Positions 15,471-37,888 of a DNA stretch of 64,000 nt are shown here, one piece after another. A program made the position numbers and the translations under genes. Location of the stretch: the NCBI RefSeq assembly GCF_013391475.1, contig NZ_JACBAZ010000002.1:62001-126000 (forward strand). Reading direction: 5' to 3'. This stretch comes from Oceaniferula marina (lineage in GTDB: Bacteria; Verrucomicrobiota; Verrucomicrobiia; Verrucomicrobiales; Akkermansiaceae). The notes beneath the pieces were generated by a model. The model did no database searches, was not told where the DNA came from, and saw only the letters and a program-made list of their open reading frames with translations. Numbering within the stretch: the stretch's first letter is position 1; each line of letters opens with the position of its first letter.

Positions 15471-16577
15471 CTAGTCGTTTTCTTGTTTTGATTGATTATC
15501 AAGGGTACCTATATCAGGTGTCGGGATGTTTTGCAACCTGTCTCGGATGATTTCTGCCCGAATGATGTCACGTTGCTCGGGGGTGAGCTTTTTATCGGAG
15601 ATGTGCTGCAGGTGTGCGGGCTCAATATCCATCAGTAAGGTGTCACAGAGGGAAATCACCTCTTTCGGGAAACACCCCATGTCGCCACCAAGACGAATCA
15701 GGGAGAGGTGGGTGAGAGCTTCCTTGGAGTCGATCACGTAGGCGTGGCGCAGCAGACCGTAGGCTCGGCCGATTTTATCAGCGAGCATCTGTGGGTCGTC
15801 TTCTGCGAGTTTGATCCGGGCGTTGCGTTCGTGGTCGCGCACTTTGCAAATGACACGTTCCAGGCGATTGATGATTTCGTCCTCGGTTTCGCCCAGCGTG
15901 GATTGATTGGAAATCTGGAACAAGTGACCGAGGGATTCGGTCCCTTCGCCAAAGATGCCGCGGACGGCCAGGCCAAGTTTGGCGACCGCTTGGATCACCT
16001 GGCCGATGTGGTCGCTGATGACCAGACCGGGGAGGTGGAGCATGGCTGAGGCGCGCAGGCCGGTGCCGACATTGGTGGGGCAGGCGGTCAGGTATCCAAG
16101 TTCATGATCGAAGGCATAGGGCAGGCTTTTTTCCAGTTGCTGGTCGATTTTGGTGATCAGCTTGTAGGCTTCACGCAGATGCAGACCGGAGCGGATCGAT
16201 TGCAGACGCAGGTGGTCTTCCTCGTTGATCATGACGCTGAGTGTCTGGTCGCGGTTGACAACGGCAGCGCTGCCTTCGTTTCTGGCTGCTTGTTCACGGC
16301 TGATCAAGTGGCGCTCGACCAGGACTTGTTTTTGTACGGACGTCAGCTCGCTGAGTTGCTGGGAGAAAGCATTGCGCATTTCGGTCAGTGATTCGACCGC
16401 TGGGCGAAGTCGCGTCATGATTTCGATGCGCTCAGGTTTACGTGCCCATCCGGGGAATGGGACGTCGGAGATGTTGCGGGCGAGGCGGATACGGCTGGTC
16501 AGGACGATCGAGCTGTCGTCTGAGGCGCCGGTCATCCATTCGGCCGGATGTTTCATCAATGTGGAGAATCGCATCAT
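15471..16577 (-). CDS. mcsB: Protein-arginine kinase McsB
   Basis: 368 residues, ATP:guanido phosphotransferase family. SSIVLTSRIRLARN at 22-35, the NEED motif at 118-121 (INEEDHLR) and CPTNVGTGLRAS at 166-177 are kinase signatures. The C-terminal RDIIRA at 336-341 matches the RDXXRA phospho-arginine-binding motif described for McsB, so allosteric regulation may be conserved. McsB phosphorylates arginines on proteins to mark them for ClpCP. It lies between mcsA (73 bp upstream) and clpC. Metabolic arginine/creatine kinases are excluded by the neighbours and the RDXXRA motif. The alternative ATG one codon in cannot be excluded. Confidence 0.95.
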   Translation of the reverse strand: MMRFSTLMKHPAEWMTGASDDSSIVLTSRIRLARNISDVPFPGWARKPERIEIMTRLRPAVESLTEMRNAFSQQLSELTSVQKQVLVERHLISREQAARNEGSAAVVNRDQTLSVMINEEDHLRLQSIRSGLHLREAYKLITKIDQQLEKSLPYAFDHELGYLTACPTNVGTGLRASAMLHLPGLVISDHIGQVIQAVAKLGLAVRGIFGEGTESLGHLFQISNQSTLGETEDEIINRLERVICKVRDHERNARIKLAEDDPQMLADKIGRAYGLLRHAYVIDSKEALTHLSLIRLGGDMGCFPKEVISLCDTLLMDIEPAHLQHISDKKLTPEQRDIIRAEIIRDRLQNIPTPDIGTLDNQSKQEND

Positions 16578-16650
16578 GGAGTGATCGCTTATCAGTAATG
16601 GGTTATCAGTTATTCGTTAACGGAGAACAGGGGGCGTCGTGGATGGATGA

Positions 16651-17190
16651 TCAGGCTTCCTGAGCCGGGCTTTCTTGTTTGTCTGGAGTAGCCGCTTGTT
16701 CGAGTTGGCGGAGTTCATCGCGCAGGGCGGCGGCTTTTTCGTAATTTTCATCCTGGATCGCCAGAGTCATTTGCTCGTGGAGTTTTTCGATTTGTTGTTG
16801 TTTTTCGTAGGCTTCGAGCATGCCTTTGGGCACCCGGCCTTTATGACTGATGCCTTTGTGCATTCCTCCGAGGTTGTGTTTGATGTCCTCACGGAAAAAC
16901 TGGTAGCACTCGCTGCAGCCGAGACGTCCGGTTTTTTTGAGGTCATCGAAAGCAAATCCACATCCTGGGCATACTGGAGGGGCGCTGACCTTGACCGGGT
17001 TTTCCGGTTGGTTGACCACCTCGGCCGTTTTTTGGGGAATGGGTTGCAAGTGGCCGATTAAAAAACCTTCGGGGTCAGTAACCCCTTGCTCAGTAGCACA
17101 TTGCTCACAGAGAGATGATTTTTTTGTCTGGCCATCAATGATCTGGGTGAAGAACACAGTGGCTTTGCTTTCACAGTAATCGCATTGCAT
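16651..17190 (-). CDS. mcsA: McsA-like zinc-finger activator of the arginine kinase
   Basis: 179 residues. Four CxxC pairs are visible: C3/C6, C28/C31, C74/C77 and C92/C95, as in the zinc-binding part of McsA. A C-terminal UVR motif (about 136-170, with DENYEKAAALRDELRQLE) follows. McsA binds and activates McsB. Start ATG 17190 places the first CxxC at the N terminus, as in the family. It is first in the mcsA-mcsB-clpC set. CtsR, which precedes mcsA in Firmicutes, is absent; the region upstream is non-coding and then divergent. Confidence 0.92.
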   Translation of the reverse strand: MQCDYCESKATVFFTQIIDGQTKKSSLCEQCATEQGVTDPEGFLIGHLQPIPQKTAEVVNQPENPVKVSAPPVCPGCGFAFDDLKKTGRLGCSECYQFFREDIKHNLGGMHKGISHKGRVPKGMLEAYEKQQQIEKLHEQMTLAIQDENYEKAAALRDELRQLEQAATPDKQESPAQEA

Positions 17191-22181: not shown

Positions 22182-23342
22182 ATGAATAATAAGGTGTCCG
22201 TCCTGAAGAGCAGGAAGAAAAACTTCCCGTGGTACGTCTCCTACCCGGACGGTGGTAAACGAAAGAAGAAATACTTCAAGAAGAAGGAGCGCAAGGGTGG
22301 TGCCGACGAGTGGGCCAAGAAGAAGCGCAATGAGTTGAAGGACATGGGCAGCCGTCATGCCTCGATCACTGAAACGGAACTCCAGGCGGTCATCAACTTC
22401 CGGGAAGCCATCTCAGAGCTTCCTGAGCACGCGCAGGAGGTCACCCTGGTTGATGCCGTGGCCAGTTTCGTAGAGGGATTAAAAAACCGACACAAGTCCA
22501 TCACCTGCCAAGAAGTCACCGATAGCCTGAAAAACAAGCTCCTCACCGAAGGAAAGAGCAAGGGCCACCGCGACACGCTGGGGTACCGTCTGAAACGCTT
22601 CAATGCCTCATACGGAGACTGGCTGGCATGCGACATCACTACGGAGATCATTGATGACTTTCTGACCAATCTCGAAATGGCACAGCAGACCCAGCTTCAC
22701 TACCGCAGGGCAATAGGACAGATGTTCAATCATGCCATCATCTTGAAAGCGGCAACCTCCAACCCCGTTACCCATGCCCTCAGGCCCAAGGTAAATGCCA
22801 TAGAGACTGGGATCCTCAAACCACAGGAGGTCGCCAGTTTACTTTCTCACGCAGACGACGATACACTTCCTGGACTGGCAATTTCATTCTTCGCCGGAAT
22901 TCGCAGAGCTGAGATCGAGCGGCTTGACTGGTCCGAGATCGACCTGGATGAAAGGCTAATCGAAATCAAGGCCGCGAAGGCAAAGACAGCACAACGCAGG
23001 CACGTTCCCATCGGGGACAATCTTGCCTCCTGGCTGATACCTTACAAAAAGCACAAAGGCCCCGTCATCAAGAGCCATGCAATCTGGCGCAAGGGTCAGC
23101 AGCAGGCTAGAGAAGATGCCAAGTTGGAAAGCTGGCCCCATAATGCGGGTCGGCATTCGTTCGCAAGTTACCACCTTGCGCATCACAATGATCCAGGGAA
23201 GCTCGCCATGGCACTGGGACACCCCGACCCCCGACTCCTGTATAAACACTACCACAAGCTGGTCACCCCCAAGACTGCGGCCCTCTACTGGAGCATCACC
23301 CCGGAAGAAGCCAAGAACATCATCAAACTCAAAACCGCATGA
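22182..23342 (+). CDS. Tyrosine recombinase (site-specific integrase)
   Basis: 386 residues. Residues 1-60 are very basic and resemble an arm-binding domain; 90-190 is a SAM-like core-binding domain; 210-365 is catalytic. Catalytic residues visible: R241 (FFAGIRRAE), a beta-hairpin Lys near 267, R324 in HNAGRHSF (the first His position is probably Asn321), H347 in LGHPDP and the nucleophile Y357 in YKHYHKL. The gene lies 100 bp inside the left attachment repeat, reading into the element, the usual place for an integrase. It should catalyse integration into, and excision from, tRNA-Arg(CCT). Phage versus ICE origin cannot be decided from this gene alone. Confidence 0.95.
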   Translation: MNNKVSVLKSRKKNFPWYVSYPDGGKRKKKYFKKKERKGGADEWAKKKRNELKDMGSRHASITETELQAVINFREAISELPEHAQEVTLVDAVASFVEGLKNRHKSITCQEVTDSLKNKLLTEGKSKGHRDTLGYRLKRFNASYGDWLACDITTEIIDDFLTNLEMAQQTQLHYRRAIGQMFNHAIILKAATSNPVTHALRPKVNAIETGILKPQEVASLLSHADDDTLPGLAISFFAGIRRAEIERLDWSEIDLDERLIEIKAAKAKTAQRRHVPIGDNLASWLIPYKKHKGPVIKSHAIWRKGQQQAREDAKLESWPHNAGRHSFASYHLAHHNDPGKLAMALGHPDPRLLYKHYHKLVTPKTAALYWSITPEEAKNIIKLKTA

Positions 23343-23973: not shown

Positions 23974-25470
23974 CTACTTTCGGAGCTTCTTATGCGGCTT
24001 ACTCGGGAAAGATCTCATATGGTTCAATGCATACGAGCTGAAGTAGTCCATCACAGACTTCATATCCTCGAAATACACTCCAACAGGAATTGGCAACGGG
24101 CAATTCACGGATCCAAAACTATGACTTAATACAAGCCCTCCAACTTCGCCAACTAAAATGATTTCCACATTAGGAGGCAAGCCTACGGATCTAAAGTATT
24201 TGACGGCATCAAAAGCCTCATAATTCTTTCGAGATTGGTATAGCTTTAAATCCGGCAACTTTACCCGTTGATCCTCTGAGTATCTATTTTCAGCTAGGCA
24301 TAAAGAGATCACTCTCTCAGATCCTGCTATCTCTTCCACTCCCTTTCTGAGGTCTGCTATAGCCATGAATAAGCTTTTACTCCTCCCCCAGGATGGGGTT
24401 TGTGGTCGAATCCACGTCACCTGCAGTGGGGTATCTTTAGTATACTCTCCAGCCCCAATCCCTCTATATATCAACCGGGATATAAGTTCGCGATTCCTAG
24501 ATAACTCCCCCGAACCAAAAATAACAGACGCCCCAGATTGGAGCTTGGGAGCGACCCCTTCAATAAAGTGCTTCATCAGACACGGCCAATTGAGCATTCC
24601 AGAATGAAGAGAGTCAGCCAAAAAGTCATCTCCAAACAAATGACGCAAGAGGGTCACATCATCACTTAGATCATGATCTGATGGTGGATTTATTTCTACC
24701 AAACCGATAAGCTGCTTACGCAACATCGCTCGCTCTTCAGTCTTTGGGTCAAGGTGATCAAAAGGAAGTACGGAAACTTCGGCCACACCACTCTGTTTAA
24801 CTTTCATGATAACGTCTGCTGCGAGCACAAGGTCTTCCTGAATTCGACAATAATCTACCTTATGCAAACTCAACTTGTCGGATCGATAATCCTCCAGATC
24901 ACCAGTAGTTTGAATAAAAGAAGGAAAGTGACGGCTAAACTGTTCCGCAACCTGTTGCTGGTAGTCAGGCCTTTTTTGCTCATGACCGGGCACACAGTCT
25001 GGTATCAGACGAGCATATTTAGATCCAAACTCCATGCGAGATCGATCGTCACGAGATAAAGGCAAACAACAATGATTCTCTACACAAAAAAATCCACTCT
25101 TGGCTTCAGCCTGGCTTATAGAGGGGATAGATTCATCATTTGATACGAACAGCTGCAGACCAGCATTGGTCAATCGCAAATTACCATTCTCTCTCATTAG
25201 CAGCTCCTGCCCGAGTAATGGAGCTAACACTATTCGCAATTCCTGATCACTGAAGTTTAAGAACCCGCACACGCTCCCCTCCCTTACTTCTCCCCCCATC
25301 GTTTTGATAAAACGCAAGACCATTTCCTGAACAACAGGAAAGTCAGTCTGCTTACGGATGGAGTAACCAATCTTAAACTTCATACACGGAACAAAAACCG
25401 TATGCACATTGGTTTCCTCTGCTGGAGTTGCACTATCCGTAAATGCCTCATATTTTAGGTATGTATCCAT
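23974..25470 (-). CDS. Unrecognised companion of the kinase-helicase protein (defence block)
   Basis: 498 residues, no signal peptide or membrane segment. I do not recognise the family. Residues 30-110 look like a winged-helix region (IRKQTDFPVVQEMVLRFI, then LRLTNAGLQLF). The C-terminal part has hydrophobic strands (VIFGSG near 317, VEIILVGEVGGLVLSHS near 448) in an alpha/beta pattern. A very degenerate phospholipase-D-like fold crossed my mind, but no HxK motif is present. Its ATG is 1 bp from the stop of the 1624-residue gene, so the two are almost certainly translated from one message and likely work together. It is the last gene of the minus-strand defence block, ending next to the integrase module. 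Confidence 0.8.
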   Translation of the reverse strand: MDTYLKYEAFTDSATPAEETNVHTVFVPCMKFKIGYSIRKQTDFPVVQEMVLRFIKTMGGEVREGSVCGFLNFSDQELRIVLAPLLGQELLMRENGNLRLTNAGLQLFVSNDESIPSISQAEAKSGFFCVENHCCLPLSRDDRSRMEFGSKYARLIPDCVPGHEQKRPDYQQQVAEQFSRHFPSFIQTTGDLEDYRSDKLSLHKVDYCRIQEDLVLAADVIMKVKQSGVAEVSVLPFDHLDPKTEERAMLRKQLIGLVEINPPSDHDLSDDVTLLRHLFGDDFLADSLHSGMLNWPCLMKHFIEGVAPKLQSGASVIFGSGELSRNRELISRLIYRGIGAGEYTKDTPLQVTWIRPQTPSWGRSKSLFMAIADLRKGVEEIAGSERVISLCLAENRYSEDQRVKLPDLKLYQSRKNYEAFDAVKYFRSVGLPPNVEIILVGEVGGLVLSHSFGSVNCPLPIPVGVYFEDMKSVMDYFSSYALNHMRSFPSKPHKKLRK

Positions 25471-25471
25471 A

Positions 25472-28400
25472 CTAGTGATCTCTCTTTATTAAATTAAACT
25501 CTTTACTACCCTTTAAAGCCTCACGCTCAATATACTGATTTACGCGTCCCAAAGGAGTATCTGGTAGCTGTGACCAAAACTGAAAGCTTCCCACGATTAT
25601 GAGCCTCTCTTGAGCCCGCGATAAGGAAACGTTAATCCTTTCCTCACTGTCCGTGTGACCTGTAATCTTCTTCCTGTTCGTGCGAGTCGGCGAAAAGATA
25701 ATTATAGGGTTCTCTTTCCCTTGGTAACTATCAACAGTATCCACTTTGCACAAATCTTGGAGCTCGCGAGAGAGCGAGGCTGCCCATATTTTTTCTTGTA
25801 TCTTCAATGCCTGCGCTTTGTAAGCGGTTATGATACCAATAGAGGCTTCTACTCCCTTCTTGACCTGTTCTTCAGCAAGGCCTTGCACCAGTTTCTTATC
25901 CTCATCAATCATCTGAAGGATTTGCATAATGACCTCGATCTCACTCAGGTTGAGATAGCTGGTATAGTCCCTTTTTTCTTCAGCCTCAGTAGGGTTCCCC
26001 GTATCAATCCATGTCACTTCGGATCTGATCTGCTCAGGCAATAACTCATAAGCCTCAGGGCTTCCTAAACGCCCATTGGACAATCCTCCTATCTCTGGAT
26101 AAAAACAATCAGACACAAGCCGATTGATCGGATCAACCATTCGATACTGAGTATCCAAGCTCTTAGCAATATCCCCCCCTATTGACGATCTGAACACCCG
26201 ATGAAAATCACTCTGTTTAACGGCTCTAGGATCACACCCTAAACTATGCACGACTTTATCGATTAACAATCTATCGAAATGAGGAGGCAGCTGCTTATGA
26301 TCTCCCACTAATATCACTTGGTGACCAACCTGCATAGCGACTGACAATTCACTAGGGCCGCAGCGAGCAGCCTCATCGATTATCACCCAGTCAAAATCTT
26401 TCTTTTCGACACCTAGGTTCCAGCGACCTATACCTACACAAGTGCCTGTAACAATCTGACTTGTATCAACCAAAAAGCTATCAAAGCCACTTACCGGTGA
26501 TTCTAGAATCTTAACCCAATCCAGTGCCAGCTCAATGACATTACCTAAGGTCCGCACTGCTGACATATTAGATACACTATACCTTTCCATTAATAGAACC
26601 TCCAATGTATCATATGATCCAAATGGATCAGCCTCATCTAGGTAAAGGTCACCAGCATGCTGTTCACAAATCTCAATTATCCTCTTCTTCAATCGGTTTC
26701 TTACCTTCTCGCTATCATCCCGGTTTGACAGCTCAGACTTAGACAATCGCTGTAGCTCATCAAATAAGGGCAAGAGTCTGGCTCTCACAATTGTAAACTC
26801 CTCAACAAAGGGTTCAGGCAATCCTAACTCTACTCCAACTGGGGCTACACGCTCTACCAAGCGCTCTCTGAAAAAGTTTCTATAGGTCGCTTGTAATGTA
26901 TCTGAGTGATAGGATATTAAATCGTCACTCAGTGAACTTCTTCTACCAACACGAACCAAAGAAGGTTCCTGACCTTCCGAACCGAAGAGTCGCACAATCT
27001 GATCTGTTGCATTATTAACAGCCTCATGCGACTGACTAACGACTAATATTTTCGAGGATGGCTTTTGAGTTGCGATATAATGCACAGCAGCTGCGATAAC
27101 TCTCGTCTTACCTGTTCCTGGAGGTCCCTGTATCAGGCTTAATGGACATTGTGTCAGTGAGTTGACCAACGCTTGCTGCTGAGGCTCATTGAGGCCATAG
27201 CTTGCAGGTAGCACTAGATCTTGGTCAAACTCATCAGAATGACTGATCGACCCCTTATCCCCTGAGAATGTATCAATCAGTGCATGAGCCGTGGACCTAC
27301 GTTGAAGAATTCTCTCTGCCGCTTTTCTTCTACGTTCATATGACATCCTCGCCCTCTTATCCTGCAAACGTATAATGCTTCCGTTCTTTGGTGGAAAGAA
27401 TGACGGATTATTATTATTAAACACTAACTTACCCACTTCCGCATCGCCAACTTCTGACTTATGTATGTTCATCTTACCTATGAATCTCCATCCATTTGAG
27501 GTCTTGGTTTCCAATGTTACATCAAGCCAGTCATTGGTAATAACACCATCAAAATTCTGAGATACGATTAACTGGTATTCCCCAGGGCGCTGATACAATG
27601 AATTGATATCTTCCACCTTCACTGTCGGAATTATTTCCTCTTCAGCATTCAGAATAGCTTCCCACAGTCTAGGAACATCAACAACAGGTTCAACATCGCT
27701 CCCATTCATAGCCCCCCTGTCTGGGCGATTAACAAACTCAATAGGTTCTATCTTCTCAGTCTTGTCTCGAGGCGAATCAAAGGATTGATTCAGGTCAATA
27801 CCTTCGTGCAATCCCTTTAAGCCAGACAAATTCATACAGTCCCCCTTCATTAAATGAACCCGCCCCTTATACTTGTGCTTGTTATGCCTCATTGCTGTAG
27901 CAAAACGCCCAGCTGAAGAGTCCTTCAACCAACAATTTTCCACGGCACCTGAATCTCGGTCTACTGCGATATCCAGCCTCATCGTTTGAGTATAAATCGA
28001 GATTCTGCATTTCGTAGGGTCTTTCCTATCATCTTGTAACTGAATAGGCATTCCTCGCTCATCCCCGGCAAAAACCACGTTATCCGTAATGAACCGCGAG
28101 TGCGCTATCAAGATATGAACTTTCCCATCCTCTTCTGTCTGAGGCAGCCGCATCAGCTCTGCAATAGCTGTAAGGGTTCCCTCAAAATCCGGGTTTGCAA
28201 CACCAGGACTATATAAAGGATCTATGCAATCTCCTAAGCGCTCTATAAAACCTTCATCAATATGCTGATACTCACGCTCCAACACATTGACGATAGTCTG
28301 CTTTAAAGCATATCCATCACGAGCTGGGGTTGCAACCTCATCCCCCTCATCAGGAGTGTATGCAGGACTCAGTCTCTCTGAACCCACTGGTGAGTAATCC

Positions 28401-30346
28401 ACAACATCCAAAAGCTTAACCGTGAAGCCATGGTCTTGCTTCTTCGTCAGCAGAATATTTGAGGGCTTGATATCCCCATGATAGATAGACCGCCTATGTA
28501 AATCCCAAACGGCTTCAACCAAACTTGTGATAAGATCTACGACTACCTCATCCTGAATCCTTGATAAATCTTCTTCCTCCAAAGTTGAGCCCTCGCACCA
28601 CTCCATCTCCACATAGCCTCCCATTCCAGTGAGACCAAAATCAGTAATGTTTTGGAGATATGGCAAAGAGTGCTTCTGTAGAGTGAGGCACCGTTCCAAG
28701 AAATTCAGCAAATGAAGATTTTGCTCTTCAAGACCTTCTTGATACCGCGCCAACATCCACAGCTTCACCTGACCAGCCTCAGACTCGGCGCCTGTTCTAT
28801 AATGGATACATTCCTGATTTTGCTTCAGGATGGTGTCCTCAGCTAAATTCGGCATAAGCAAACGTTCCCGTTTAAACTCATCGAAATAACGCTCCGAAAC
28901 CACTTTCTCTTTCTCCACCTTGATGCACCGATTAAATGCATCTAGCGCTGCCTTGGCATTTGCAAAACGAGCCTCTGGCTCCCAGTCCAACGCTCTGTCA
29001 AACCAAGCTTCAAACAACTCAGCTTCTTCGCCTTTCCTTGCAGACCAATGCGGAACACCATCATCCAGAGAAGGGAGTTCACCGAAGATAATTTGATGAA
29101 CCGATACAGCGGCAAGGAAAACATCTTTACGATAATGGTCTGATATACAATCCAACCGATCTTCCGGTAGCGTAGTCGTATTGGCCTTCACCGTAGTCCG
29201 GACCTGACTGATGGTTTTTTCATCCGGGACATGAGCGGTAGCGAAGCCTGACAAGGAAACCCTCTCAGGAACGTCCACCCAAACACAATGGTCGCCTAAA
29301 TCCCGGTGAGCAACTTTCAACTCATGGAGCTCAGCCACTCTTCGAAGAAGCATCGTAGCCATGCTCACTCGGTCATTAAATTTGAGCTTGTTCTTATACT
29401 GGGCTGAAGACTCCCTCAACCGCTTCATAGAAACGGGCAAATCATACAGCTCAAAAAAGTCGTTTGTAACGGAGGATCGGCCCTCGTTAGATATAGGCCT
29501 TAGAAATGCTCCACTCTGATCCAGAATTGGGTTCTGCTCTTTCAGGTAACCAATTGCATCCTCTTCCCTAAGGGCAATCTGCTTACGATTGGACTCTTCC
29601 CGGTAAGCGCCATCAATGTCCGCCAAACTTTCAAAGTCCCAAACTCGAAGTAGCGCACTTGAACCCTTCACCCCTGGTTTCTTAGCGAAGAACTCTGAAT
29701 AGATCTTCTGTGGATGTTGAAAACAGTAATCATCCTCAGCTTTAAATTCATTATATGAACGTGAGCTCCCTTTAAAGTTCTGCTTACCCTTGAAGAAGTA
29801 ATCCAGCTCTGTCTTCATATCCGCTATCTCCGTCGTTTGCTCCAATCGATGTCTTGAGACCAGCCAGCTCCCCTTCTTTGGGAAAGCCTCCATAAAAGTT
29901 TTGAAACTTCCCAGCCTCACAAAGTAATCTAAATCAAACGTATGCTGCTTGCTTTCTTCACTTAGTGTCGCTCTGCTTGCTCGCCCTGTTAATAACACAC
30001 AATGATCAACCCATGGAGCATCAGCCTTTTTAGTCAAATGTCTCTTGAGACGGCCGGCCAGCACCTTAGCTTTCTCTCGAATAGTTATGACTGGAGACTT
30101 CTCAGTTCTCCCAGCTGTCTGCCACCTCTGCCCTTGATCATCAATAGGGTGATCCCAGTCTTTGATTTCAACTGCAATCAATCGATCCCATGCACATATA
30201 ATCAAATCAATTTCACCTCCATCTCGACCAATCATCTCGAGTGAGGCATACGCAAACCACTCATTCGGAAGTTTTGATGCTAATGCTGTAAGAGCTTTTA
30301 TTTCGCGACGATGGCACCCGCTAGGGTTAAGAGTATGAATTTTCAT
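25472..30346 (-). CDS. NERD / pseudokinase / protein kinase / SF1 helicase fusion (defence candidate)
   Basis: 1624 residues. An N-terminal NERD nuclease-like domain has GGEIDLII (D47) and VEIK (E60, K62). Around 290-470 is a kinase fold with HRDLGDH at 347 but SGF in place of DFG, probably a pseudokinase. Around 510-720 is a second kinase with HGDIKPSNIL (D625, K627, N630) and DVV instead of DFG. The C-terminal 1050-1600 region is an Upf1-like SF1 helicase: Walker A GPPGTGKT at 1074-1081, Walker B IIDEAA at 1322, VGDHKQLPP at 1347, VDSYQGKE at 1538, NVSLSRAQERL at 1572. It is translationally coupled to the 498-residue gene. Defence function is inferred from the DISARM-like neighbours; nucleic-acid cleavage plus signalling through phosphorylation is plausible. 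Confidence 0.9.
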   Translation of the reverse strand: MKIHTLNPSGCHRREIKALTALASKLPNEWFAYASLEMIGRDGGEIDLIICAWDRLIAVEIKDWDHPIDDQGQRWQTAGRTEKSPVITIREKAKVLAGRLKRHLTKKADAPWVDHCVLLTGRASRATLSEESKQHTFDLDYFVRLGSFKTFMEAFPKKGSWLVSRHRLEQTTEIADMKTELDYFFKGKQNFKGSSRSYNEFKAEDDYCFQHPQKIYSEFFAKKPGVKGSSALLRVWDFESLADIDGAYREESNRKQIALREEDAIGYLKEQNPILDQSGAFLRPISNEGRSSVTNDFFELYDLPVSMKRLRESSAQYKNKLKFNDRVSMATMLLRRVAELHELKVAHRDLGDHCVWVDVPERVSLSGFATAHVPDEKTISQVRTTVKANTTTLPEDRLDCISDHYRKDVFLAAVSVHQIIFGELPSLDDGVPHWSARKGEEAELFEAWFDRALDWEPEARFANAKAALDAFNRCIKVEKEKVVSERYFDEFKRERLLMPNLAEDTILKQNQECIHYRTGAESEAGQVKLWMLARYQEGLEEQNLHLLNFLERCLTLQKHSLPYLQNITDFGLTGMGGYVEMEWCEGSTLEEEDLSRIQDEVVVDLITSLVEAVWDLHRRSIYHGDIKPSNILLTKKQDHGFTVKLLDVVDYSPVGSERLSPAYTPDEGDEVATPARDGYALKQTIVNVLEREYQHIDEGFIERLGDCIDPLYSPGVANPDFEGTLTAIAELMRLPQTEEDGKVHILIAHSRFITDNVVFAGDERGMPIQLQDDRKDPTKCRISIYTQTMRLDIAVDRDSGAVENCWLKDSSAGRFATAMRHNKHKYKGRVHLMKGDCMNLSGLKGLHEGIDLNQSFDSPRDKTEKIEPIEFVNRPDRGAMNGSDVEPVVDVPRLWEAILNAEEEIIPTVKVEDINSLYQRPGEYQLIVSQNFDGVITNDWLDVTLETKTSNGWRFIGKMNIHKSEVGDAEVGKLVFNNNNPSFFPPKNGSIIRLQDKRARMSYERRRKAAERILQRRSTAHALIDTFSGDKGSISHSDEFDQDLVLPASYGLNEPQQQALVNSLTQCPLSLIQGPPGTGKTRVIAAAVHYIATQKPSSKILVVSQSHEAVNNATDQIVRLFGSEGQEPSLVRVGRRSSLSDDLISYHSDTLQATYRNFFRERLVERVAPVGVELGLPEPFVEEFTIVRARLLPLFDELQRLSKSELSNRDDSEKVRNRLKKRIIEICEQHAGDLYLDEADPFGSYDTLEVLLMERYSVSNMSAVRTLGNVIELALDWVKILESPVSGFDSFLVDTSQIVTGTCVGIGRWNLGVEKKDFDWVIIDEAARCGPSELSVAMQVGHQVILVGDHKQLPPHFDRLLIDKVVHSLGCDPRAVKQSDFHRVFRSSIGGDIAKSLDTQYRMVDPINRLVSDCFYPEIGGLSNGRLGSPEAYELLPEQIRSEVTWIDTGNPTEAEEKRDYTSYLNLSEIEVIMQILQMIDEDKKLVQGLAEEQVKKGVEASIGIITAYKAQALKIQEKIWAASLSRELQDLCKVDTVDSYQGKENPIIIFSPTRTNRKKITGHTDSEERINVSLSRAQERLIIVGSFQFWSQLPDTPLGRVNQYIEREALKGSKEFNLIKRDH

Positions 30347-30572: not shown

Positions 30573-32141
30573 TCAGTATTTACCTTTAGGTCTTCGTCCA
30601 AGCATCTGAGCGACTTTACAGGCTATCTGCCATGCCAAGTATGGTGGTACGGCGTTACCAACTTGGTGGAACTGGGCAGTGCGGGGGCCTTGGAAAAAGT
30701 AATCGTCGGGGAACGTTTGAAGACGTGCCGCTTCTCGCACAGTCAGACTCCTGCACTGTGTAGGATCATAATGAATGTAGTAATGCCCATCCTTGGAAAT
30801 ATGAGACACAACCGTAGTCGAAGGTTGATTTTTACACTGCACACGAAAGCGGTCATCGAAGACTATCTTCCCTCCTGGCTTCTTAACATTCTTGTGAGCT
30901 GGAAGGAGAGAGCTGGGGTAATGGGTCAATTTAGGGCTGACATTATGCTCAAGAGCGTAGCAAGCGGCATAAAAATAACGCTGCAAATCACTGCCCATAT
31001 GATTCCTGCACACGTGATTGAAGACGTAAGGAAATTTTTGTTCCTGATACCATTTTTCCAGAGCCTTGGGTTTTGTTTGCAACTCTTCAGATGACCTCGT
31101 TTCGATATTAACTCCGTTATTCTGAGCCTTCCTCAACTTACCAAGCTGGTGAGTGAGTCTGCTTGCCAGACCTGCATCTGTTTGTTTGAGCTCCTTGACC
31201 CAAGAGTGCGTTTTAATTTCTCGAATGCTTTTACACCAATCACCATTAGAACGCCGAGAAAAACCACTTCTGAGCTTGGGAAGATCTTCTATAACATCGG
31301 ACACCGACACTCTGGTTTCAGGGTCAGGAACAAGGTGTTGCATCTTTATTTTAGATCCACGCTTAATGCCGATGATGAACACTCGATGACGTTTCTGAGG
31401 AACTCCAAAGTCCTCTGCACGAACCAGAAAATCCGATGGCACATATTCACCTTCGATATCTTTCTGAACAGGTTCAACCAAGGGATAAAGATCGTATATA
31501 GCTTTACTGGGCTTCTTCTTAATTGAAAGGTCTGTCGCTTTGCCCGGCTCATGTAAGTCAGCCAGTATTTGCTTAAAGATATCTATCTTCTTTACATTGG
31601 CAGATAAAATCCCTTTGACGTTCTCCATAACAAAGACCGATGGGGAATGATCGGCAACGATACGGAGATACTGCTTGTAGAGAAAGTGTCTGTGATCTTC
31701 CTCAAAGTCAGGATCAGTGCCTCTCATGCGAGCCCTACCAGCAAGTGAATATGCCTGGCAAGGTGGGCCTCCGATAAGAACCCATTCTTTAGCTCCTTTG
31801 AGAGCATCATTAATTCTTTTTGATATCGCAGTGTCAGGAAAGTCATCTCCGCCAAGCTCGGCCTGCCATGCTTCGTGAGCAGCCTCTTTATATGCTTTGG
31901 GGTGATGGCGCTTAAGTGCTTTTAGAGCCTCTTCAGGTGCAGCCTGAGCCTCCACAAAATATTTATCGAGACTCGATCTCCCATTTGGGGTTTTGCGAAG
32001 TATGCGTGTAAACGAACGAAACAACAAAGTTTCATGAGCTTGGGCATCACATTCGATCGATAACTTAATGTCAAACCCTGCCCGGGTGAATCCCTCACCC
32101 AAGCCACCAGGACCAGCGAAGATATCAATTATTGGTAACAC
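30573..32141 (-). CDS. drmMII: C5-cytosine DNA methyltransferase (DISARM class 2 DrmMII-like)
   Basis: 522 residues with all core m5C motifs: I FAGPGGLGEGF at 8-18, IV GGPPCQAYSLAGR with catalytic C128, VI MENVKG (E173), VIII QKRHRVFIIG near 258, and X QVGNAVPPYLAWQIA near the C terminus. An extra segment of about 60 residues separates motifs I and IV. It should methylate a cytosine in a specific DNA sequence to mark self DNA. It is 74 bp downstream of drmB on the same strand, matching class 2 DISARM composition. A stand-alone restriction-modification role is less likely because no dedicated endonuclease gene adjoins it. Confidence 0.9.
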   Translation of the reverse strand: MLPIIDIFAGPGGLGEGFTRAGFDIKLSIECDAQAHETLLFRSFTRILRKTPNGRSSLDKYFVEAQAAPEEALKALKRHHPKAYKEAAHEAWQAELGGDDFPDTAISKRINDALKGAKEWVLIGGPPCQAYSLAGRARMRGTDPDFEEDHRHFLYKQYLRIVADHSPSVFVMENVKGILSANVKKIDIFKQILADLHEPGKATDLSIKKKPSKAIYDLYPLVEPVQKDIEGEYVPSDFLVRAEDFGVPQKRHRVFIIGIKRGSKIKMQHLVPDPETRVSVSDVIEDLPKLRSGFSRRSNGDWCKSIREIKTHSWVKELKQTDAGLASRLTHQLGKLRKAQNNGVNIETRSSEELQTKPKALEKWYQEQKFPYVFNHVCRNHMGSDLQRYFYAACYALEHNVSPKLTHYPSSLLPAHKNVKKPGGKIVFDDRFRVQCKNQPSTTVVSHISKDGHYYIHYDPTQCRSLTVREAARLQTFPDDYFFQGPRTAQFHQVGNAVPPYLAWQIACKVAQMLGRRPKGKY

Positions 32142-32215
32142 GGCTTGATGTTATGTATGAAATCCGAAAAAATCATCACAAAAAACATCAAGATCCGGGA
32201 TCTCTATGTAATATC

Positions 32216-34177
32216 TCACGGCTTTATTAATATTGATGCTCTGTGTGATTCCAACACAAGGGACCTGTCGAGATAGCGGTTAAAGCATTCACAACTTGTT
32301 TCAGGTAACAATGCGCAGCTGTGGCATGCTGCCAGATTCAACGACTCCGGCCCCTGACCGGAATCTGCAGATTCTCGGCAAACAGGATCCGCAGAACACC
32401 ATTGAGCCTCCTCAATAGCATTAGAAACCAGTCGTGATAGGTTCTCCGGATCAGCAAGCCTTACAAGCCCTCCCAACGTGCCTTCGGAATCACCAGCGGC
32501 TGTATATATTAAAAGGCCAGCCATCGGATCTGCCGAGTCGTCCGACACATAAAGTCTTTCTCTCAGGGCTGACGAACCATAACCACACTCGAAAACCAAA
32601 CGATTAATCAAAAGGTGCGACAAAGTATGTATCAGAACCATCCTCGGGCTGATTTCCAAGGGCTCCCAATCATATTGCAGAACACACTCATCATGATTAT
32701 CCTGCAGTTTACTTACGTGTTGTTTTACTGCTTTAGAGTTCTCCCACTTATTTATAAGCCCCTCATCGAATGTAATAAAGATGCCTTCGCCCCTTACCAC
32801 CGATGCAGGAAGCCACCTTTCTTCTGGATTAGCCGGTAAATTATCCCATAGCAAGTTTGTTGGAGATGGTGCTCCATGAGGCGGATAGCTTAGAAGGCGA
32901 GAAAAACCTGCGAAGACACGGGTTTCCTTGAGGCTTTCTACCGCTATGATTTGATCCACCAACTTACTTGCCACCCCATCAAGTTGAGTGGAGTCAAGTT
33001 TCCTGAGGATGAGATCGCCTGATCGATCTGTATCTTTGAGCAACGCTTGGTATTCGTCAGCACGGATCCTAGCTTCCTGCTCCGCTCGGCTTAAAACCCC
33101 AATATTAGCGGGTTCCTCTGGTGGCATTGGAGGAGCTTCGGCATGCCCTTGCAAGGCGGATTCTATCTGCTCATCAGTATAACCACCAAGTCGGGGCTGT
33201 TGTGATTGGGTATCGAGCTTTCTCACCCCCCTGACTATGTCTGGGATTTCCATGTCCGACATGCGTAACATTTGAATCCGTGTTCTAAATGAGGATTCTT
33301 CAAGGATCAATGAAAGTTCATTGGGGTTGGGGGTATATTTTGGGGGGACGTGGATGGCGCTTCTCACATCTGCATAGTGAACATTCGTCGAGTTAATGAG
33401 TACCGCGCGCAGGGGGCGTTCACAGCTATCGTTATTTACTGGGCCTAGCCATGATTTCTTTCCCTCGCAAAGGTAAGGATCTGGATAAGCGGCCGTATTG
33501 TTCTGGTTTTTTTTGACGCGTAAATAACGACTCAAACCGCTCCACCCTTCAGGCTGGCTGCTATCGCCCCTCATTTCTCCCTGCATAACTAACCCCAGAG
33601 ACCTAGATACATTGCATCTTGTGCACTCTACTCGAATCGAGTCAAGAGAACCTGACCCTTGGGCTTTGTATACCAGCGAATTTGTGCAAGCCCTATGATC
33701 ATCTGATGAACGATGTACCCATTCGAGCCACGGAAGGTCCTGAAGATGGCCATGATCACACACTGCAGCAAAACGCACTTGTGAAAGTCTGGCCCGTTTA
33801 CAATCTTCGCCCGAGCATGTCAGGTGCCCGAAGTTGGTCAGGGATGCTTTCTTCATTCTGCCGCAGCGTGGACAAGCAAACCAAGTAGGGAATCGAAACA
33901 CAGGAGTCATAAGTACAGGAGCCTCTCCGCTGCTGCGATTTTCCGGGCCAGGCGCCATGCGAAAGTGCGATACATTGAGATCTTTCTCAAGGCGAGGTTC
34001 CCTGATCACTAGGGGACCTTTAAGTATCTCCTCGTGACTCGCCTTGTTTCCGTTTCGGTCCTTAAACCAGTGATCAAGACCACCGGTTACGACCCCTATG
34101 CCACCTTCCAATACGTGGAGTGCTCCGGGACCAAAAGGAGCTATGAGCTGTGAACGTCTTATCGGATTTAATCTCAT
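32216..34177 (-). CDS. drmB: DrmB-like DUF1998 protein of DISARM
   Basis: 653 residues. RLNPIRRSQLIAPFGPGAL at the N terminus, a zinc-type cluster (FACPRCGRM near 115, then TCSGEDCKR and CTRCNVS) and the C-terminal DUF1998 region (VLIHTLSHLLINRLVFECGY near 513, LLIYTAAGDSEGTLGGL near 554, CHSCALLPETSCECFNRYLD near 620) are the hallmarks of DrmB. DrmB pairs with the DrmA helicase to form the core complex that recognises incoming DNA. Its start overlaps the drmA stop as ATGA, implying translational coupling. No catalytic function is known for DUF1998. Confidence 0.92.
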   Translation of the reverse strand: MRLNPIRRSQLIAPFGPGALHVLEGGIGVVTGGLDHWFKDRNGNKASHEEILKGPLVIREPRLEKDLNVSHFRMAPGPENRSSGEAPVLMTPVFRFPTWFACPRCGRMKKASLTNFGHLTCSGEDCKRARLSQVRFAAVCDHGHLQDLPWLEWVHRSSDDHRACTNSLVYKAQGSGSLDSIRVECTRCNVSRSLGLVMQGEMRGDSSQPEGWSGLSRYLRVKKNQNNTAAYPDPYLCEGKKSWLGPVNNDSCERPLRAVLINSTNVHYADVRSAIHVPPKYTPNPNELSLILEESSFRTRIQMLRMSDMEIPDIVRGVRKLDTQSQQPRLGGYTDEQIESALQGHAEAPPMPPEEPANIGVLSRAEQEARIRADEYQALLKDTDRSGDLILRKLDSTQLDGVASKLVDQIIAVESLKETRVFAGFSRLLSYPPHGAPSPTNLLWDNLPANPEERWLPASVVRGEGIFITFDEGLINKWENSKAVKQHVSKLQDNHDECVLQYDWEPLEISPRMVLIHTLSHLLINRLVFECGYGSSALRERLYVSDDSADPMAGLLIYTAAGDSEGTLGGLVRLADPENLSRLVSNAIEEAQWCSADPVCRESADSGQGPESLNLAACHSCALLPETSCECFNRYLDRSLVLESHRASILIKP

Positions 34178-37100
34178 AATTCTGAAATAGTTTTGGTTTC
34201 TGATTCAGTGTCGCTGGCATCAGCGTAACTAGGTATAATGGGCTGACACTCTGAGTCCACACCTCGTAATGAATTTGGTGTGGGCCAGACTTTGTTGACC
34301 CATCCTATAGGGTAGGGGCTGCCCGGGGGCAGTATCAACGGCTGGTCGCCGCTGTTCTCCTTAGGGAAGTATTCCTGCCATCGAACGGATCCGAATTTTT
34401 CCCACTCTTTTCTTCGTTTCCTATAACAATCATCAAGATCTGAGAGCACACGTTTTTGCTCCTTCGGGTTGGTGCACAATACTTTAACACGCTGCTTCAA
34501 CAAGTCGTAGGCTCTATCTGCAGCAAGCTCAAGAGGCGTACCATCAAATGGCCAAGGGGCGGACAGTTCATCCAAGGGCAAAGTCTGCCTGACCCACGCG
34601 ATCATGATTGCGTGTAATGCACGTTCCATTACCGGAATCGTAAACGGTGTCACACTTGCCGGCTCTACCTGAGCATAAAGTCTCGAATGATATGATTGAA
34701 ATTGTTCATAATGTGAACGATCCCTTGCCTTAGTTGCATTGTAATGAGTTAGAATAAGACCTTGAAGATTACGGCCGACGCGACCTGTGGCTTGGATATA
34801 CTGGGCCGTCGTTTTAGGTTGACCCGCTACTGCCATTAAAGCCAGTCGGTCAACATCAACACCAACTTCAATGATGTTCGATGCCAAGCAACAGTCCACA
34901 GGATAGTGCCCCCTTGCTGGCTTGCTTGTGTAGGCCCTTGACAGTGATTCGAGGGCCTGTGGAACTTCGCTGTTGCTTAATCGTCCTGTTAGCTCAAGAA
35001 TTTCATATATATATCTGTGCTTTTGGTTGGGAAACCATCTGCGTTGGATATTCTTTAATCGTTCGGGAATATCAGACCCGAATAACGTTAAACCACCACC
35101 GAGTTCCCGCAGACTATTATAAAAAATTAGCAAAGACCACCAAGGATCTCTGTCATCATCATTGGGAAATCCTTGAGCAGCGGCTATTAGTGCAGCATAA
35201 GTTCTAACACTTGCAGTTAGTAATGACGAATAATTCAAAGGGAGAAGGCCAACATAAAGTCGGCCGGGTCTCCTTTTACCCTTTTCATCACGCGAGTACC
35301 TGGCAAAAAAAGAATCCGATGCATCCACCCCTGGAGGAGGAAAAATGGATGTTTGGGGACGCGCATAAAGATCTTTGATCTGAGACTCTGACGCTCTTGT
35401 AGTGGCTGTAGCAGCAATAAGCTTTGGCTTTACGGGCTGACCTAAATTGCGATCATCGGTTGCCAAAGCATCCACTAGTGTTTCATACAAACCTACCATA
35501 CTCCCCAGAGGACCTGTAATCAGGTGGAGTTCGTCCTGTATTATCAAGCCGGGAGGGGATACCCTGCGCGTTCCTTCGCTGTCTATACCGAACAGGCTTC
35601 TACAGTTCGACTTCCATGCAAGTGATGCAAACTTATCCACTGTAGCGATGACAAATGTAGGGGGCTCGTCATACAGATCTTGGTCGATTACACTTATGGG
35701 TAGAGCTCTGGCGAAATCACATTTTCTGTCCGGGCAATGCACTATTACCGTACCGTTACCGCGACGTATACCGCTGACATCATAACTGTTGCCTCTTCCC
35801 TGGGTTTTACGGGGACCGATTTCAGCACCACACCAAGGACACTTAAGCAACACCATTTTATAGTCTTCCGCACCGTTCCTTCTGGTTTGGGCTATCGATG
35901 TCACAGCCCCATCGCGGCTATTGGGGGTGGTCGAGCTTCCGACCCAGATCCCAATGGTGAAGGGGGTAGTACCAAGTCTTTCCGCTAGATTCTTGCGAAT
36001 AATCTCCATGGCGCAGATCAAAGATGACGCCCTCTGAAATTGTTGTGCGGTCAGCAGCCGGAGTGTGTATCTCATTAATACATCAGTGCCAACATCAGCA
36101 GGATTTCTTAACCTACGCATGAAGATTGAAAAAGCAGCACAGCCCAAATAAGCCTCTGTTTTACCCCCGCCTGTTGGAAACCAGATAAGGTCGACTATCT
36201 CTCGTCCAGGATCGGATGGATCGGCAAGTGATGTGAGGTTCATCAGCAGAAATGCAATCTGAAAAGGTCTCCATGATCGATCTATTGCCTCCTTGGATGT
36301 CAAATCAGGAGCGACATACTCAGGCTCATAGATATTCCTCTGTATCTTTTCATCCCTTATACGGATACGGGTTCTGGCTCGTGAGGCCAAGGCCTGCATA
36401 AGCATTGATTTATTAGTAAGACGAAAAGCTATCGAGGCCTCTGAATCAGGATCGGCTTCAAGAAGACGAACACCCCGTTGCATACGGTTCATAGCCTCGA
36501 GGCAATCCTCGATATGCCTTGAAGCCGCAGCCTTGTACTTTTCTTCCAAATCAACTATCTCCTCTTTTTTTTCATTGATCCAGTTTTCATATAAGCTGAC
36601 CAACTGCCGTAAGTGGCCCAATGCCTCTTCAGTTCTATTTTCATCAGCCAGCGTAGTGAGAGGTATTCGGAGCTCCTCAAGCTTGCCCGTTGAAGAGTCC
36701 TTGTAAGTTAAAATTGGTGTGATAGAGGGGCTTTCATGGGACGGCAGGGCCTCCGCTATTACCTTTTTCGCGTGGAATGCTTTTTCATCAGCTTTCCAAG
36801 TTCCGGCACACCCGTGACCCGTGGAGAAAGTTCTCTCGTGTCTGTAAAGAAGATCAAGGGATTCCTGCTCCTCACCCGCGTTTACTATTTTACTGCTCGG
36901 GTAGTGAAGTATGGCCTGATCTGAATCCTGCGATACCACCTCAAAGCGTGCTTGAAAAAATGAATGCTCCTCGGCAAGATCTTTACGACATTCGGTTCTG
37001 TTTACCAAACTCAAGGTGATCAAGCGCGCAGTGTCGGGATGCTCAGTTCCGGGAATCCGCTCCCGACCTCTTACGAGAAATTCCATCTGCAGCTTAAGCG

Positions 37101-37881
37101 GCGGCAGTCCCGGCAAAACAGGCACATCAATAGGAACGGGTTCTACCGGGGCCTCCACATTCTTGAACTGATGGAGTGGAATCGAAATCTCGTGTTTCAC
37201 CGGATGACGAACCCACCAGTTTTGGTTTGTTGTTTTCCCTTTAATACGGACATTACCTGATCTTTTGTACCGTCCTCCAGTGACATTTATTGATATGTTG
37301 CCGCCCACTCCAGAGTCAACTACAAAGGATAAACCAATACTGCGTTGCTTTCGTTGATTAGCCAAACGTAGATCCGAACTGTCAGAGTCCGAATCACTGT
37401 CATCCTGGCTTCCTTCGGATAACGCTTCCCCCGAAAGCTTGGCTCTTTTTTCCATATTTTTAGCCAGTTTGACCTCACGCTTCCCGATCTGATTTCCAGC
37501 TTCATAGGATTCATCCTCATTCTCTGAAAACTCTTTTTTTCCCACTGAAACGGCCTCCTCGACAGCATGGACTTCGCTATCATTACCAATCTCCTGATCA
37601 GTTTGTGGAAACAAAATCCCAAGACCATATCGACTGCTGGGTTTTTCATCTTTGAGAATTTCTTCACCTGTAATTTTGTCCACAGGCCTGGTAGCATGGT
37701 AAGCTTTCCAGTCGTCAAATTCTATACGTTCGCCAACATCGTAGGGAGTAGACTCCACAAGCAAAGATTCTTTCCCCAAGTCAAACGGGCTATCTGGCCC
37801 AAAAATTTCACCTGCCAATGCAGCTAGCAGCTTGGCTCGATTATTAAGGTGATGGTGTTCTTTTTTGGATACTACTGACAT
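34174..37881 (-). CDS. drmA: DrmA-like DISARM helicase
   Basis: 1235 residues. The SF2 helicase core has Walker A PTGGGKTEAY at about 567, a zinc-type CPWC...CPDRKC insert near 690-735, Walker B QDELH near 782, TATATTRAS near 815, and the C-terminal lobe with SNIIEVGVDVDRLA near 1005 and QATGRVGR near 1032. The N-terminal 560 residues are a long non-helicase region with an acidic Ser/Asp stretch near 155-170. In DISARM, DrmA with DrmB translocates on DNA and discriminates foreign DNA. Coupled to drmB by a 4-bp overlap and 7 bp after the NERD-helicase gene. Confidence 0.92.
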   Translation of the reverse strand: MSVVSKKEHHHLNNRAKLLAALAGEIFGPDSPFDLGKESLLVESTPYDVGERIEFDDWKAYHATRPVDKITGEEILKDEKPSSRYGLGILFPQTDQEIGNDSEVHAVEEAVSVGKKEFSENEDESYEAGNQIGKREVKLAKNMEKRAKLSGEALSEGSQDDSDSDSDSSDLRLANQRKQRSIGLSFVVDSGVGGNISINVTGGRYKRSGNVRIKGKTTNQNWWVRHPVKHEISIPLHQFKNVEAPVEPVPIDVPVLPGLPPLKLQMEFLVRGRERIPGTEHPDTARLITLSLVNRTECRKDLAEEHSFFQARFEVVSQDSDQAILHYPSSKIVNAGEEQESLDLLYRHERTFSTGHGCAGTWKADEKAFHAKKVIAEALPSHESPSITPILTYKDSSTGKLEELRIPLTTLADENRTEEALGHLRQLVSLYENWINEKKEEIVDLEEKYKAAASRHIEDCLEAMNRMQRGVRLLEADPDSEASIAFRLTNKSMLMQALASRARTRIRIRDEKIQRNIYEPEYVAPDLTSKEAIDRSWRPFQIAFLLMNLTSLADPSDPGREIVDLIWFPTGGGKTEAYLGCAAFSIFMRRLRNPADVGTDVLMRYTLRLLTAQQFQRASSLICAMEIIRKNLAERLGTTPFTIGIWVGSSTTPNSRDGAVTSIAQTRRNGAEDYKMVLLKCPWCGAEIGPRKTQGRGNSYDVSGIRRGNGTVIVHCPDRKCDFARALPISVIDQDLYDEPPTFVIATVDKFASLAWKSNCRSLFGIDSEGTRRVSPPGLIIQDELHLITGPLGSMVGLYETLVDALATDDRNLGQPVKPKLIAATATTRASESQIKDLYARPQTSIFPPPGVDASDSFFARYSRDEKGKRRPGRLYVGLLPLNYSSLLTASVRTYAALIAAAQGFPNDDDRDPWWSLLIFYNSLRELGGGLTLFGSDIPERLKNIQRRWFPNQKHRYIYEILELTGRLSNSEVPQALESLSRAYTSKPARGHYPVDCCLASNIIEVGVDVDRLALMAVAGQPKTTAQYIQATGRVGRNLQGLILTHYNATKARDRSHYEQFQSYHSRLYAQVEPASVTPFTIPVMERALHAIMIAWVRQTLPLDELSAPWPFDGTPLELAADRAYDLLKQRVKVLCTNPKEQKRVLSDLDDCYRKRRKEWEKFGSVRWQEYFPKENSGDQPLILPPGSPYPIGWVNKVWPTPNSLRGVDSECQPIIPSYADASDTESETKTISEL

Positions 37882-37888
37882 TTTATGA

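What the first reader, a model, noticed from the sequence alone, without database searches (positions are those of the whole stretch)
23974..30346. NERD-pseudokinase-kinase-helicase fusion coupled to an unknown protein
One polypeptide combines a NERD domain, a kinase fold lacking DFG (SGF), a second kinase with intact HGDIKPSN but DVV for DFG, and a complete SF1 helicase. A 498-residue partner starts 1 bp after its stop. This pair lies beside DISARM genes but is not part of known DISARM, and could be a separate two-gene antiviral system using phosphorylation with nucleic-acid processing.
Basis: partly seen in the sequence, partly recalled or inferred. Interest (0 to 1): 0.78.

Follow-up and report, generated by a model that had tools for sequence, protein, structure and literature searches.

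The report
Mokosh-type phage defence, nuclease-swapped branch
This two-gene unit is a relative of a known bacterial anti-phage system called Mokosh, sitting next to a second known system (DISARM); what is unusual is that its branch seems to have lost the usual nuclease and may use a different one attached to a pair of kinase domains.

Summary
In detail: a 1624-aa protein (NERD, pseudokinase, kinase, SF1 helicase) is followed after 1 bp by a 498-aa partner. The pair is not new: PADLOC's Mokosh type I models match both genes (MkoA E=0 nearly full length; MkoB 1.7e-43). In 19 of 19 complete relative loci the partner follows directly, and no DISARM homologue was seen in their flanks, so the pair is independent of the DISARM operon beside it. 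What seems new concerns its branch. Mokosh is described as helicase plus PLD nuclease, but the catalytic HxKx4D motif is absent from MkoB in 20 of 20 members of this NERD-bearing branch, and present in 9 of 9 actinobacterial and cyanobacterial NERD-less loci. NERD catalytic residues are kept in 21 of 21. The NERD-pseudokinase-kinase part aligns with PglW of BREX type 2 (hhalign E=2e-35). I infer a helicase sensor that unleashes NERD under kinase control. Against a simple one-for-one swap: four Hyphomicrobiales loci have neither NERD nor HKD, but a PP2C phosphatase gene. The window protein probably branches first in its clade (91/93).

The parts
25472..30346 (-). mkoA-like gene, 1624 aa: NERD + pseudokinase + kinase + middle region + SF1 helicase
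   Evidence: PADLOC PDLC03921 MkoA E=0, 1328.5 bits, residues 1-1614 to profile 1-1594 of 1607
29990..30307 (-). NERD nuclease-related domain, residues 14-119; D47, E60, K62
   Evidence: Pfam PF08378 2.2e-9; D47 and K62 in 21 of 21, E or D at 60 in 21 of 21
28910..29764 (-). pseudokinase domain, residues 195-479 (R234, E261, HRD347-349, C354, S366)
   Evidence: AlphaFold model, VIA Z 21.7 to PknB; Arg234 in 21 of 21, Ser or Thr for the DFG Asp in 21 of 21
28211..28831 (-). second kinase domain, about residues 506-712 (K528, HGD623-625, N630, D647); limits approximate
   Evidence: Pfam Pkinase best stretch 557-647; profile positions 539-639 of A4 match PknB structures; D647 in 21 of 21
27227..28129 (-). 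middle region, about residues 740-1040, mostly beta in the model, no family assigned
   Evidence: secondary structure of model m3f3ecdb2c372; barely tested by the fold search
25586..27193 (-). SF1 (UPF1/IGHMBP2-like) helicase, residues 1052-1587; Walker A K1080, DE1324-1325
   Evidence: Pfam AAA_11 2.1e-38, AAA_12 2e-36; TIGR00376 5.2e-42, below that family's cut-off; K1080, D1324, E1325 in 21 of 21
23974..25470 (-). mkoB-like gene, 498 aa: winged helix + degenerate PLD-like domain
   Evidence: PADLOC PDLC03923 MkoB 1.7e-43, residues 20-473
25129..25350 (-). MkoB winged-helix domain, residues 41-114
   Evidence: VIA Z 12.9, rmsd 1.6, 72 aligned, to OhrR (MarR family)
24031..24573 (-). MkoB C-terminal PLD-like region, about residues 300-480, catalytic HxKx4D motif absent; limits inferred
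   Evidence: Foldseek matches to PLD-family structures from E 4.8e-5 (no ranges printed there); motif lost in alignment with HKD-bearing MkoB

Best explanation
A divergent, NERD-bearing branch of Mokosh type I, an anti-phage unit that acts on its own beside an unrelated DISARM operon. Proposed working: (1) MkoB, with its winged helix and PLD-like scaffold, forms a complex with MkoA and holds nucleic acid (inferred). (2) The UPF1-like helicase of MkoA engages phage nucleic acid or an RNA-DNA intermediate and hydrolyses ATP (motifs shown, activity and target inferred). (3) The conformational signal passes through the pseudokinase to the second kinase, which keeps its catalytic loop and phosphorylates MkoA, MkoB or a host protein (residues shown, activity inferred). 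(4) This releases the NERD nuclease, which replaces the dead PLD site as the cutting effector (conserved triad shown, role inferred).
For: MkoA and MkoB PADLOC matches. Partner directly after mkoA in 19 of 19 complete relatives, and 8 of 8 MkoB tblastn hits in plasmids lie beside a MkoA hit. Window plus 20 relatives: NERD D47 and K62 21 of 21, E/D60 21 of 21; kinase 2 D647 21 of 21, HGD and N630 20 of 21, K528 19 of 21. HxKx4D in MkoB 0 of 20 in this branch against 9 of 9 actinobacterial and cyanobacterial short loci, and no NERD in the 13 short MkoA or elsewhere in their loci, while PglW and another NERD protein were found by the same HMM. No Pfam PLD match in 19 long-branch MkoB, window included. 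Profile match of the NERD-pseudokinase-kinase part to PglW, E=2e-35, where a recent paper suggests a backup nuclease role for NERD (PMC12839542, section 23 and passages).
Against: Four of 13 short-type loci (Hyphomicrobiales) also lack HKD yet have no NERD, so loss of HKD does not need a NERD. HGN and Lys for Asn in L024, and Arg or Asn for the beta-3 Lys in L010 and L016, weaken the case for an active kinase 2 in those. MkoB keeps Glu or Asp at 436 (20 of 20) and mostly His450 (18 of 20), so a changed active site is possible. The PLD-like fold rests on a middling model (mean pLDDT 71.4) and low TM-scores. A published table lists both NERD and a PLD-like domain under Mokosh type I. No activity was measured.
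Confidence: 0.5

Rival explanations
1. The kinase is the effector: on sensing, kinase 2 phosphorylates host proteins and stops growth; NERD only binds nucleic acid or serves as a backup.
For: Kinase 2 is largely intact. A PP2C phosphatase gene follows mkoB in 4 of 4 Hyphomicrobiales short-type loci that have neither NERD nor HKD, which suggests that phosphorylation matters there. PADLOC defence kinases (PD-T4-6) resemble the kinase region.
Against: The NERD triad is kept in 21 of 21, unexpected if it were idle; kinase 2 residues are broken in L024 and altered in L010 and L016.
Confidence: 0.22
2. MkoB remains the nuclease, with a rebuilt active site in the PLD-like fold (Glu/Asp436 and His450 in place of HKD).
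For: Foldseek finds PLD-family folds. Position 436 is Glu or Asp in 20 of 20 and 450 is His in 18 of 20.
Against: HxKx4D absent in 20 of 20; no Pfam PLD match; residue 450 is Met in L022 and Asn in L016.
Confidence: 0.15
3. mkoAB is an accessory of the adjacent DISARM operon.
For: Same strand, 226 bp behind DrmMII; no terminator-like or promoter-like match in that gap, though both scans gave no more than chance overall.
Against: No match to the window's DISARM-side proteins at 1e-5 in the other loci held then; DrmA in 0 of 9 relative genomes; in samples of 288 genomes of the phylum MkoA was found only in the window's own genome, DrmA in that and 9 others.
Confidence: 0.04
4. A housekeeping RNA helicase-kinase pair unrelated to defence.
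For: UPF1-like helicases include housekeeping proteins (recalled).
Against: Patchy occurrence: apart from the centre genomes themselves 0 of 287 in the phylum and 0 of 368 in another class at the cut-offs used; on 61 plasmid records at 80% coverage or more and, with MkoB, in a phage record between integrase genes; PADLOC defence models match.
Confidence: 0.02

Closest known systems
Mokosh type I (PADLOC MkoA PDLC03921 + MkoB PDLC03923)
   Same: Both genes, order, tight spacing, helicase and Ser/Thr kinase; full-length model match. A published table lists NERD among Mokosh type I domains (PMC10952713, passages).
   Different: A published description calls the second type I gene a PLD nuclease (PMC11672841, passages); here the catalytic motif is absent. 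The window protein lies outside the other 19 long MkoA in the tree (91/93).
Short Mokosh type I (PADLOC PDLC03920 + PDLC03922), L029; and tblastn relatives of L029: L107-L113, L118
   Same: Kinase-helicase plus MkoB in the same order (PADLOC was run on L029 only).
   Different: No NERD; one kinase with HRDxxxxN and DFG or DFA; MkoB has intact HxKx4D.
PglW of BREX type 2
   Same: NERD, pseudokinase, kinase in the same order; hhalign 99.9%, E=2e-35, MkoA 11-724 to PglW 14-785. Both have Arg where the beta-3 Lys of the first kinase is expected.
   Different: The C-terminal half is described as wHTH and inactive STAND domains, not a helicase (PMC12839542, section 23). PglW has lost the HRD Asp of the first kinase (6 of 6) but keeps an Asp at the DFG place (6 of 6); MkoA the reverse. 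Far below the NCBIfam PglW cut-off (86.6 of 990 bits).
MAD6 kinase of the methylation-associated defence system
   Same: NERD plus kinase model resembles residues 14-505 (167.1 bits).
   Different: Below the family's cut-off of 460 bits; the model (612 positions) is much shorter than MkoA (1624 aa).

Membership tests
Mokosh type I | MkoA homologue over full length | tested here: met
   PDLC03921 E=0, 1-1614 to 1-1594/1607
Mokosh type I | MkoB homologue directly downstream | tested here: met
   PDLC03923 1.7e-43, 1 bp gap
Mokosh type I | RNA helicase (COG1112 family) and Ser/Thr kinase (published description) | tested here: met
   AAA_11, AAA_12, Pkinase; TIGR00376 match below cut-off. COG1112 itself was not searched
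Mokosh type I | PLD nuclease with catalytic HKD motif (PLD nuclease: PMC11672841 passages; HKD as its active site is recalled) | tested here: not met
   HxKx4D absent from the window MkoB and 19 of 19 branch relatives; no Pfam PLD match. The fold resembles PLD proteins. So it is filed as a Mokosh-type-I-related branch, not as a textbook type I system
Mokosh type I | anti-phage activity | not testable with these tools
   needs cloning and phage challenge
DISARM | mkoAB is a DISARM component | tested here: not met
   no match to the window's DISARM-side proteins in the other loci tested, DrmA 0 of 9 relative genomes; DISARM set without mkoAB in L139 (only 2.4 kb of contig beyond DrmMII) and L148
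BREX type 2 PglW | N-terminal NERD-pseudokinase-kinase | tested here: met
   hhalign E=2e-35 over 678 columns
BREX type 2 PglW | score above the NCBIfam equivalog cut-off | tested here: not met
   86.6 bits against 990
BREX type 2 PglW | neighbouring pglX and pglZ | not tested
   not every window ORF was scanned
MADS MAD6 | score above the NCBIfam cut-off | tested here: not met
   167.1 bits against 460

The most novel reading that the evidence does not exclude
The NERD-pseudokinase-kinase block is a portable, JAK-like sensor-to-nuclease unit shared by MkoA and PglW (and, by the literature, a subset of DndF). By taking it up, one Mokosh branch moved its cutting activity from MkoB's PLD site to NERD, leaving MkoB as a non-catalytic nucleic-acid clamp. 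A second branch in Hyphomicrobiales lost the PLD site independently and took up a PP2C phosphatase instead.
Probability: 0.4. Interest if true: 0.65.

Novelty: new variant of a known kind. Interest (0 to 1): 0.42.

Why it matters
Mokosh is usually presented as a helicase plus a PLD nuclease. The branch studied here has no PLD catalytic motif but a conserved NERD, and it is not rare: a near-identical form of one member covers at least 80% of the pair in 309 of 5426 complete E. coli genomes searched. If NERD is the cutter, the stated effector would be wrong for those systems. It would also link Mokosh to BREX type 2 through a shared signalling-nuclease block, and E. coli laboratory strains make the idea directly testable.

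Tried and rejected
A part of DISARM or a new two-gene system: rejected. Integrative element with visible ends: a tyrosine integrase gene (22182-23342) lies beside mkoB, but no plausible att repeat was found in 17400-48000, the only tRNA is at 53186-53260, and the two flanking genes tried are hardly kept in 39 relatives, own genome included (each in 2 of 39), so no empty site could be shown. A strict NERD-for-HKD swap: weakened by four loci. Viral-contig scan with MkoA as a single protein: no relative. Promoter scan 14 found against 29.9 expected by shuffling, terminators 16 against 16.7: uninformative. PLD families are absent from the VIA list for MkoB, which the winged helix fills; that tells nothing. 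In the phylum and class searches few candidates per genome were scored, so misses are possible.

Rows dropped or added: L015 (record unannotated, near L021 in the tree) was left out of A1, A2, and L027 (cut by the contig end) has no room for mkoB; the residue counts were therefore redone with both (21 rows), while the HKD and tree counts hold the window plus L008-L026. Nine of the 19 loci helped to build the MkoB HMM (A2); L015 and L018-L026 did not. L024's mkoB is cut at the contig end after the motif region. L117 entered the tree untrimmed because the trimming motif was not found. Two of eight PglW loci (L120, L121) were dropped because the ORF picker chose a wrong frame. Of 61 plasmid records with 80% coverage 10 regions were fetched; of 23 short-type records, 12. 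In one search the last part of the script failed (no short-locus scan) and was rerun.
Full report
WHAT IS THERE. The two ORFs are as described. After a co-directional DISARM-like run, 42197 down to 30573, come 226 bp, then mkoA (25472-30346) and, one base later, mkoB (23974-25470), all on the minus strand. Pfam gives NERD, Pkinase and SF1 helicase domains to the long protein and nothing over a cut-off to the partner.

WHAT IT IS. PADLOC identifies the pair as MkoA (PDLC03921, E=0, 1328.5 bits, full length) and MkoB (PDLC03923, 1.7e-43), the two proteins of Mokosh type I. In 72,556 plasmid records MkoA has 177 matching records at 1e-30, 61 of them with at least 80% coverage. MkoB has 8, and each lies directly beside a MkoA hit (compared). 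An HMM of MkoB found the partner directly downstream in 9 of 9 that were not cut by the contig end, and in 10 of 10 plasmid loci; 9 of these 10 were in the HMM, but their annotated genes show the same. Gaps run from -41 to +14 bases (the two most negative depend on the start chosen).

INDEPENDENCE FROM DISARM. Blast of the window's DISARM-side proteins found no match at 1e-5 in the other 96 loci held then; flanks there are at most 10 kb and short in L018 and L024. The same queries do find DISARM elsewhere. DrmA is absent from 9 of 9 relative genomes tested, and found in the window's own. In samples of 288 genomes of the window's phylum, DrmA is in 10, own genome included, and MkoA in the own genome only. 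The order DrmE-like, NERD-helicase, DrmA, DrmB, DrmMII recurs without mkoAB in L139, where 2.4 kb of contig remain beyond DrmMII. L148, a Rhodococcus plasmid, has the NERD-helicase, DrmA and DrmB in that order, after an unmatched hypothetical gene. The adjacency is therefore best read as a defence-island neighbourhood, not a functional unit.

DOMAINS AND CATALYTIC RESIDUES. Counts are for the window plus L008-L027 (21 rows; parts of them already). NERD: D47 and K62 21 of 21, E or D at 60 21 of 21. First kinase: Arg at the beta-3 Lys place 21 of 21, HRD Asp kept 21 of 21, Ser (19) or Thr (2) for the DFG Asp, catalytic-loop Asn kept in 1 of 21 (L017); hence a conserved pseudokinase. Second kinase: DFG Asp 21 of 21, HGD and Asn 20 of 21 (L024 differs in both), Lys 19 of 21 (L010 Arg, L016 Asn). 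The first kinase folds like PknB (VIA Z 21.7, rmsd 3.5, 240 aligned). The best Foldseek hits include two-domain kinases such as JAK, but TM-scores over the whole are low (0.18-0.19), so that is an analogy only. The middle region of MkoA is unassigned.

MKOB. The model (mean pLDDT 71.4, pTM 0.64) has a MarR-like winged helix (residues 41-114, Z 12.9). Foldseek matches PLD-family proteins (Vaccinia F13, NucT, Nuc, Zucchini; E 4.8e-5 to 4.4e-2, TM low) and TrmBL2. In the branch with NERD, HxKx4D is found in 0 of 20 MkoB, namely the window and L008-L026. Thirteen short-type loci (MkoA 1130-1161 aa, one HRDxxxxN kinase near the start) were read. A NERD HMM from the long branch finds nothing in the 13 short MkoA at E up to 10 and nothing in the 880 ORFs of their loci at 0.01, while it does find PglW (2 of 2) and the window's NERD-helicase. 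Nine of 9 actinobacterial and cyanobacterial MkoB have HxKx4D. Four of 4 from Hyphomicrobiales do not, and each of these four has a PP2C phosphatase gene right after mkoB (PP2C domain checked by Pfam in L114 only). In the alignment the HKD Lys column is Glu in the long branch (19 of 20; Asp in L016).

EVOLUTION. A helicase-domain tree of 37 rows puts the 20 long MkoA on one side of a branch (support 100/99) with the window sequence outside the other 19 (91/93, not starred; its own branch is long, 1.08). The four PP2C rows stand together (100/100), nearer the cyanobacterial HKD rows (87/83, not starred). The root is a midpoint and four outgroup rows have long branches. All 19 others are from Pseudomonadota. 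HKD loss thus probably happened at least twice: in one case NERD and pseudokinase are present, in the other PP2C is.

SHARED BLOCK WITH BREX. PglW and a subset of DndF are described as NERD, inactive kinase, active kinase (PMC12839542, section 23 read); the listing shows no occurrence of Mokosh in that paper. In the first kinase PglW has lost the HRD Asp but has Asp at the DFG place (6 of 6 each), MkoA the reverse; Arg at the beta-3 Lys place is common to both.

LITERATURE. PMC11672841 (passages) describes Mokosh as an RNA helicase plus PLD nuclease, with an additional kinase domain in type I. PMC10952713 (passages) lists both NERD and a PLD-like domain under Mokosh type I, so a locus with both may be known; I could not see the original paper. 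PMC11291487 (passages) says Mokosh degrades viral transcripts; a 2026 review table gives the mechanism as unknown (PMC12926258, passage). Searches for Mokosh with NERD, phospholipase D, pseudokinase, phosphatase 2C, or RNA helicase plus nuclease plus kinase listed no paper whose seen text describes loss of the PLD site, a pseudokinase or a PP2C partner in Mokosh; one search listed only 10 of 392 papers, and the library lacks most subscription journals.

MECHANISM. Shown: domain content, conserved residues, gene pairing, motif loss. Inferred: sensing by the helicase, signalling through the kinase pair, NERD as cutter, MkoB as a clamp. I hold the identity as a Mokosh-type-I relative at about 0.95 and the NERD-effector mechanism at about 0.5.

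VERDICT. Ordinary as to system, since it is a relative of a known defence system beside another known one. Unusual as to its effector: it fails one published defining feature, the PLD nuclease. PADLOC already holds models of this long branch, so the branch itself is not unknown to databases. I therefore call it a new variant of a known kind.

Noticed in passing
window 30573-42197 (-): DISARM variant without a DrmC match: DrmMII, DrmB, DrmA, a NERD-UvrD helicase (37889-39604, PADLOC RTasNERD-Hel 5e-34), a DrmE-like C-terminal protein (39607-41262, below NCBIfam cut-off) and an unmatched 324-aa protein. Of 9 other DISARM genomes of the phylum the NERD-helicase was found near DrmA in 3 and the DrmE-like protein in 2 (several contigs are short); NERD-helicase, DrmA and DrmB also recur in L148.
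   Followed up: partly
L114, L115, L116, L117 (Hyphomicrobiales plasmids): Short Mokosh type I with a third gene for a PP2C-type protein phosphatase directly after mkoB, and no HKD motif in MkoB.
   Followed up: partly
E. coli genomes, query L015:8830-15233: A long-type mkoAB matches at high identity in 350 of 5426 complete E. coli genomes (309 with at least 80% of the pair), 355 of 357 places on chromosomes.
   Followed up: partly
L149 (Pseudomonas phage vB_PaeS-D14H), 2204-8711: A phage record carries mkoA and mkoB (MkoB HMM 2.8e-125) between integrase genes.
   Followed up: partly
window 22182-23342 (+): Tyrosine integrase gene beside mkoB; no att-like repeats found.
   Followed up: partly
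window 12820-17190 (-): Clp ATPase, ATP:guanido phosphotransferase domain and a UVR-motif protein in a row; it recalls the ClpC-McsB-McsA set (names recalled).
   Followed up: no
L109 6381-8150 (Mycobacterium gallinarum plasmid): MkoB there is annotated with an S1 RNA-binding domain besides its HKD motif, which hints at RNA as ligand.
   Followed up: no
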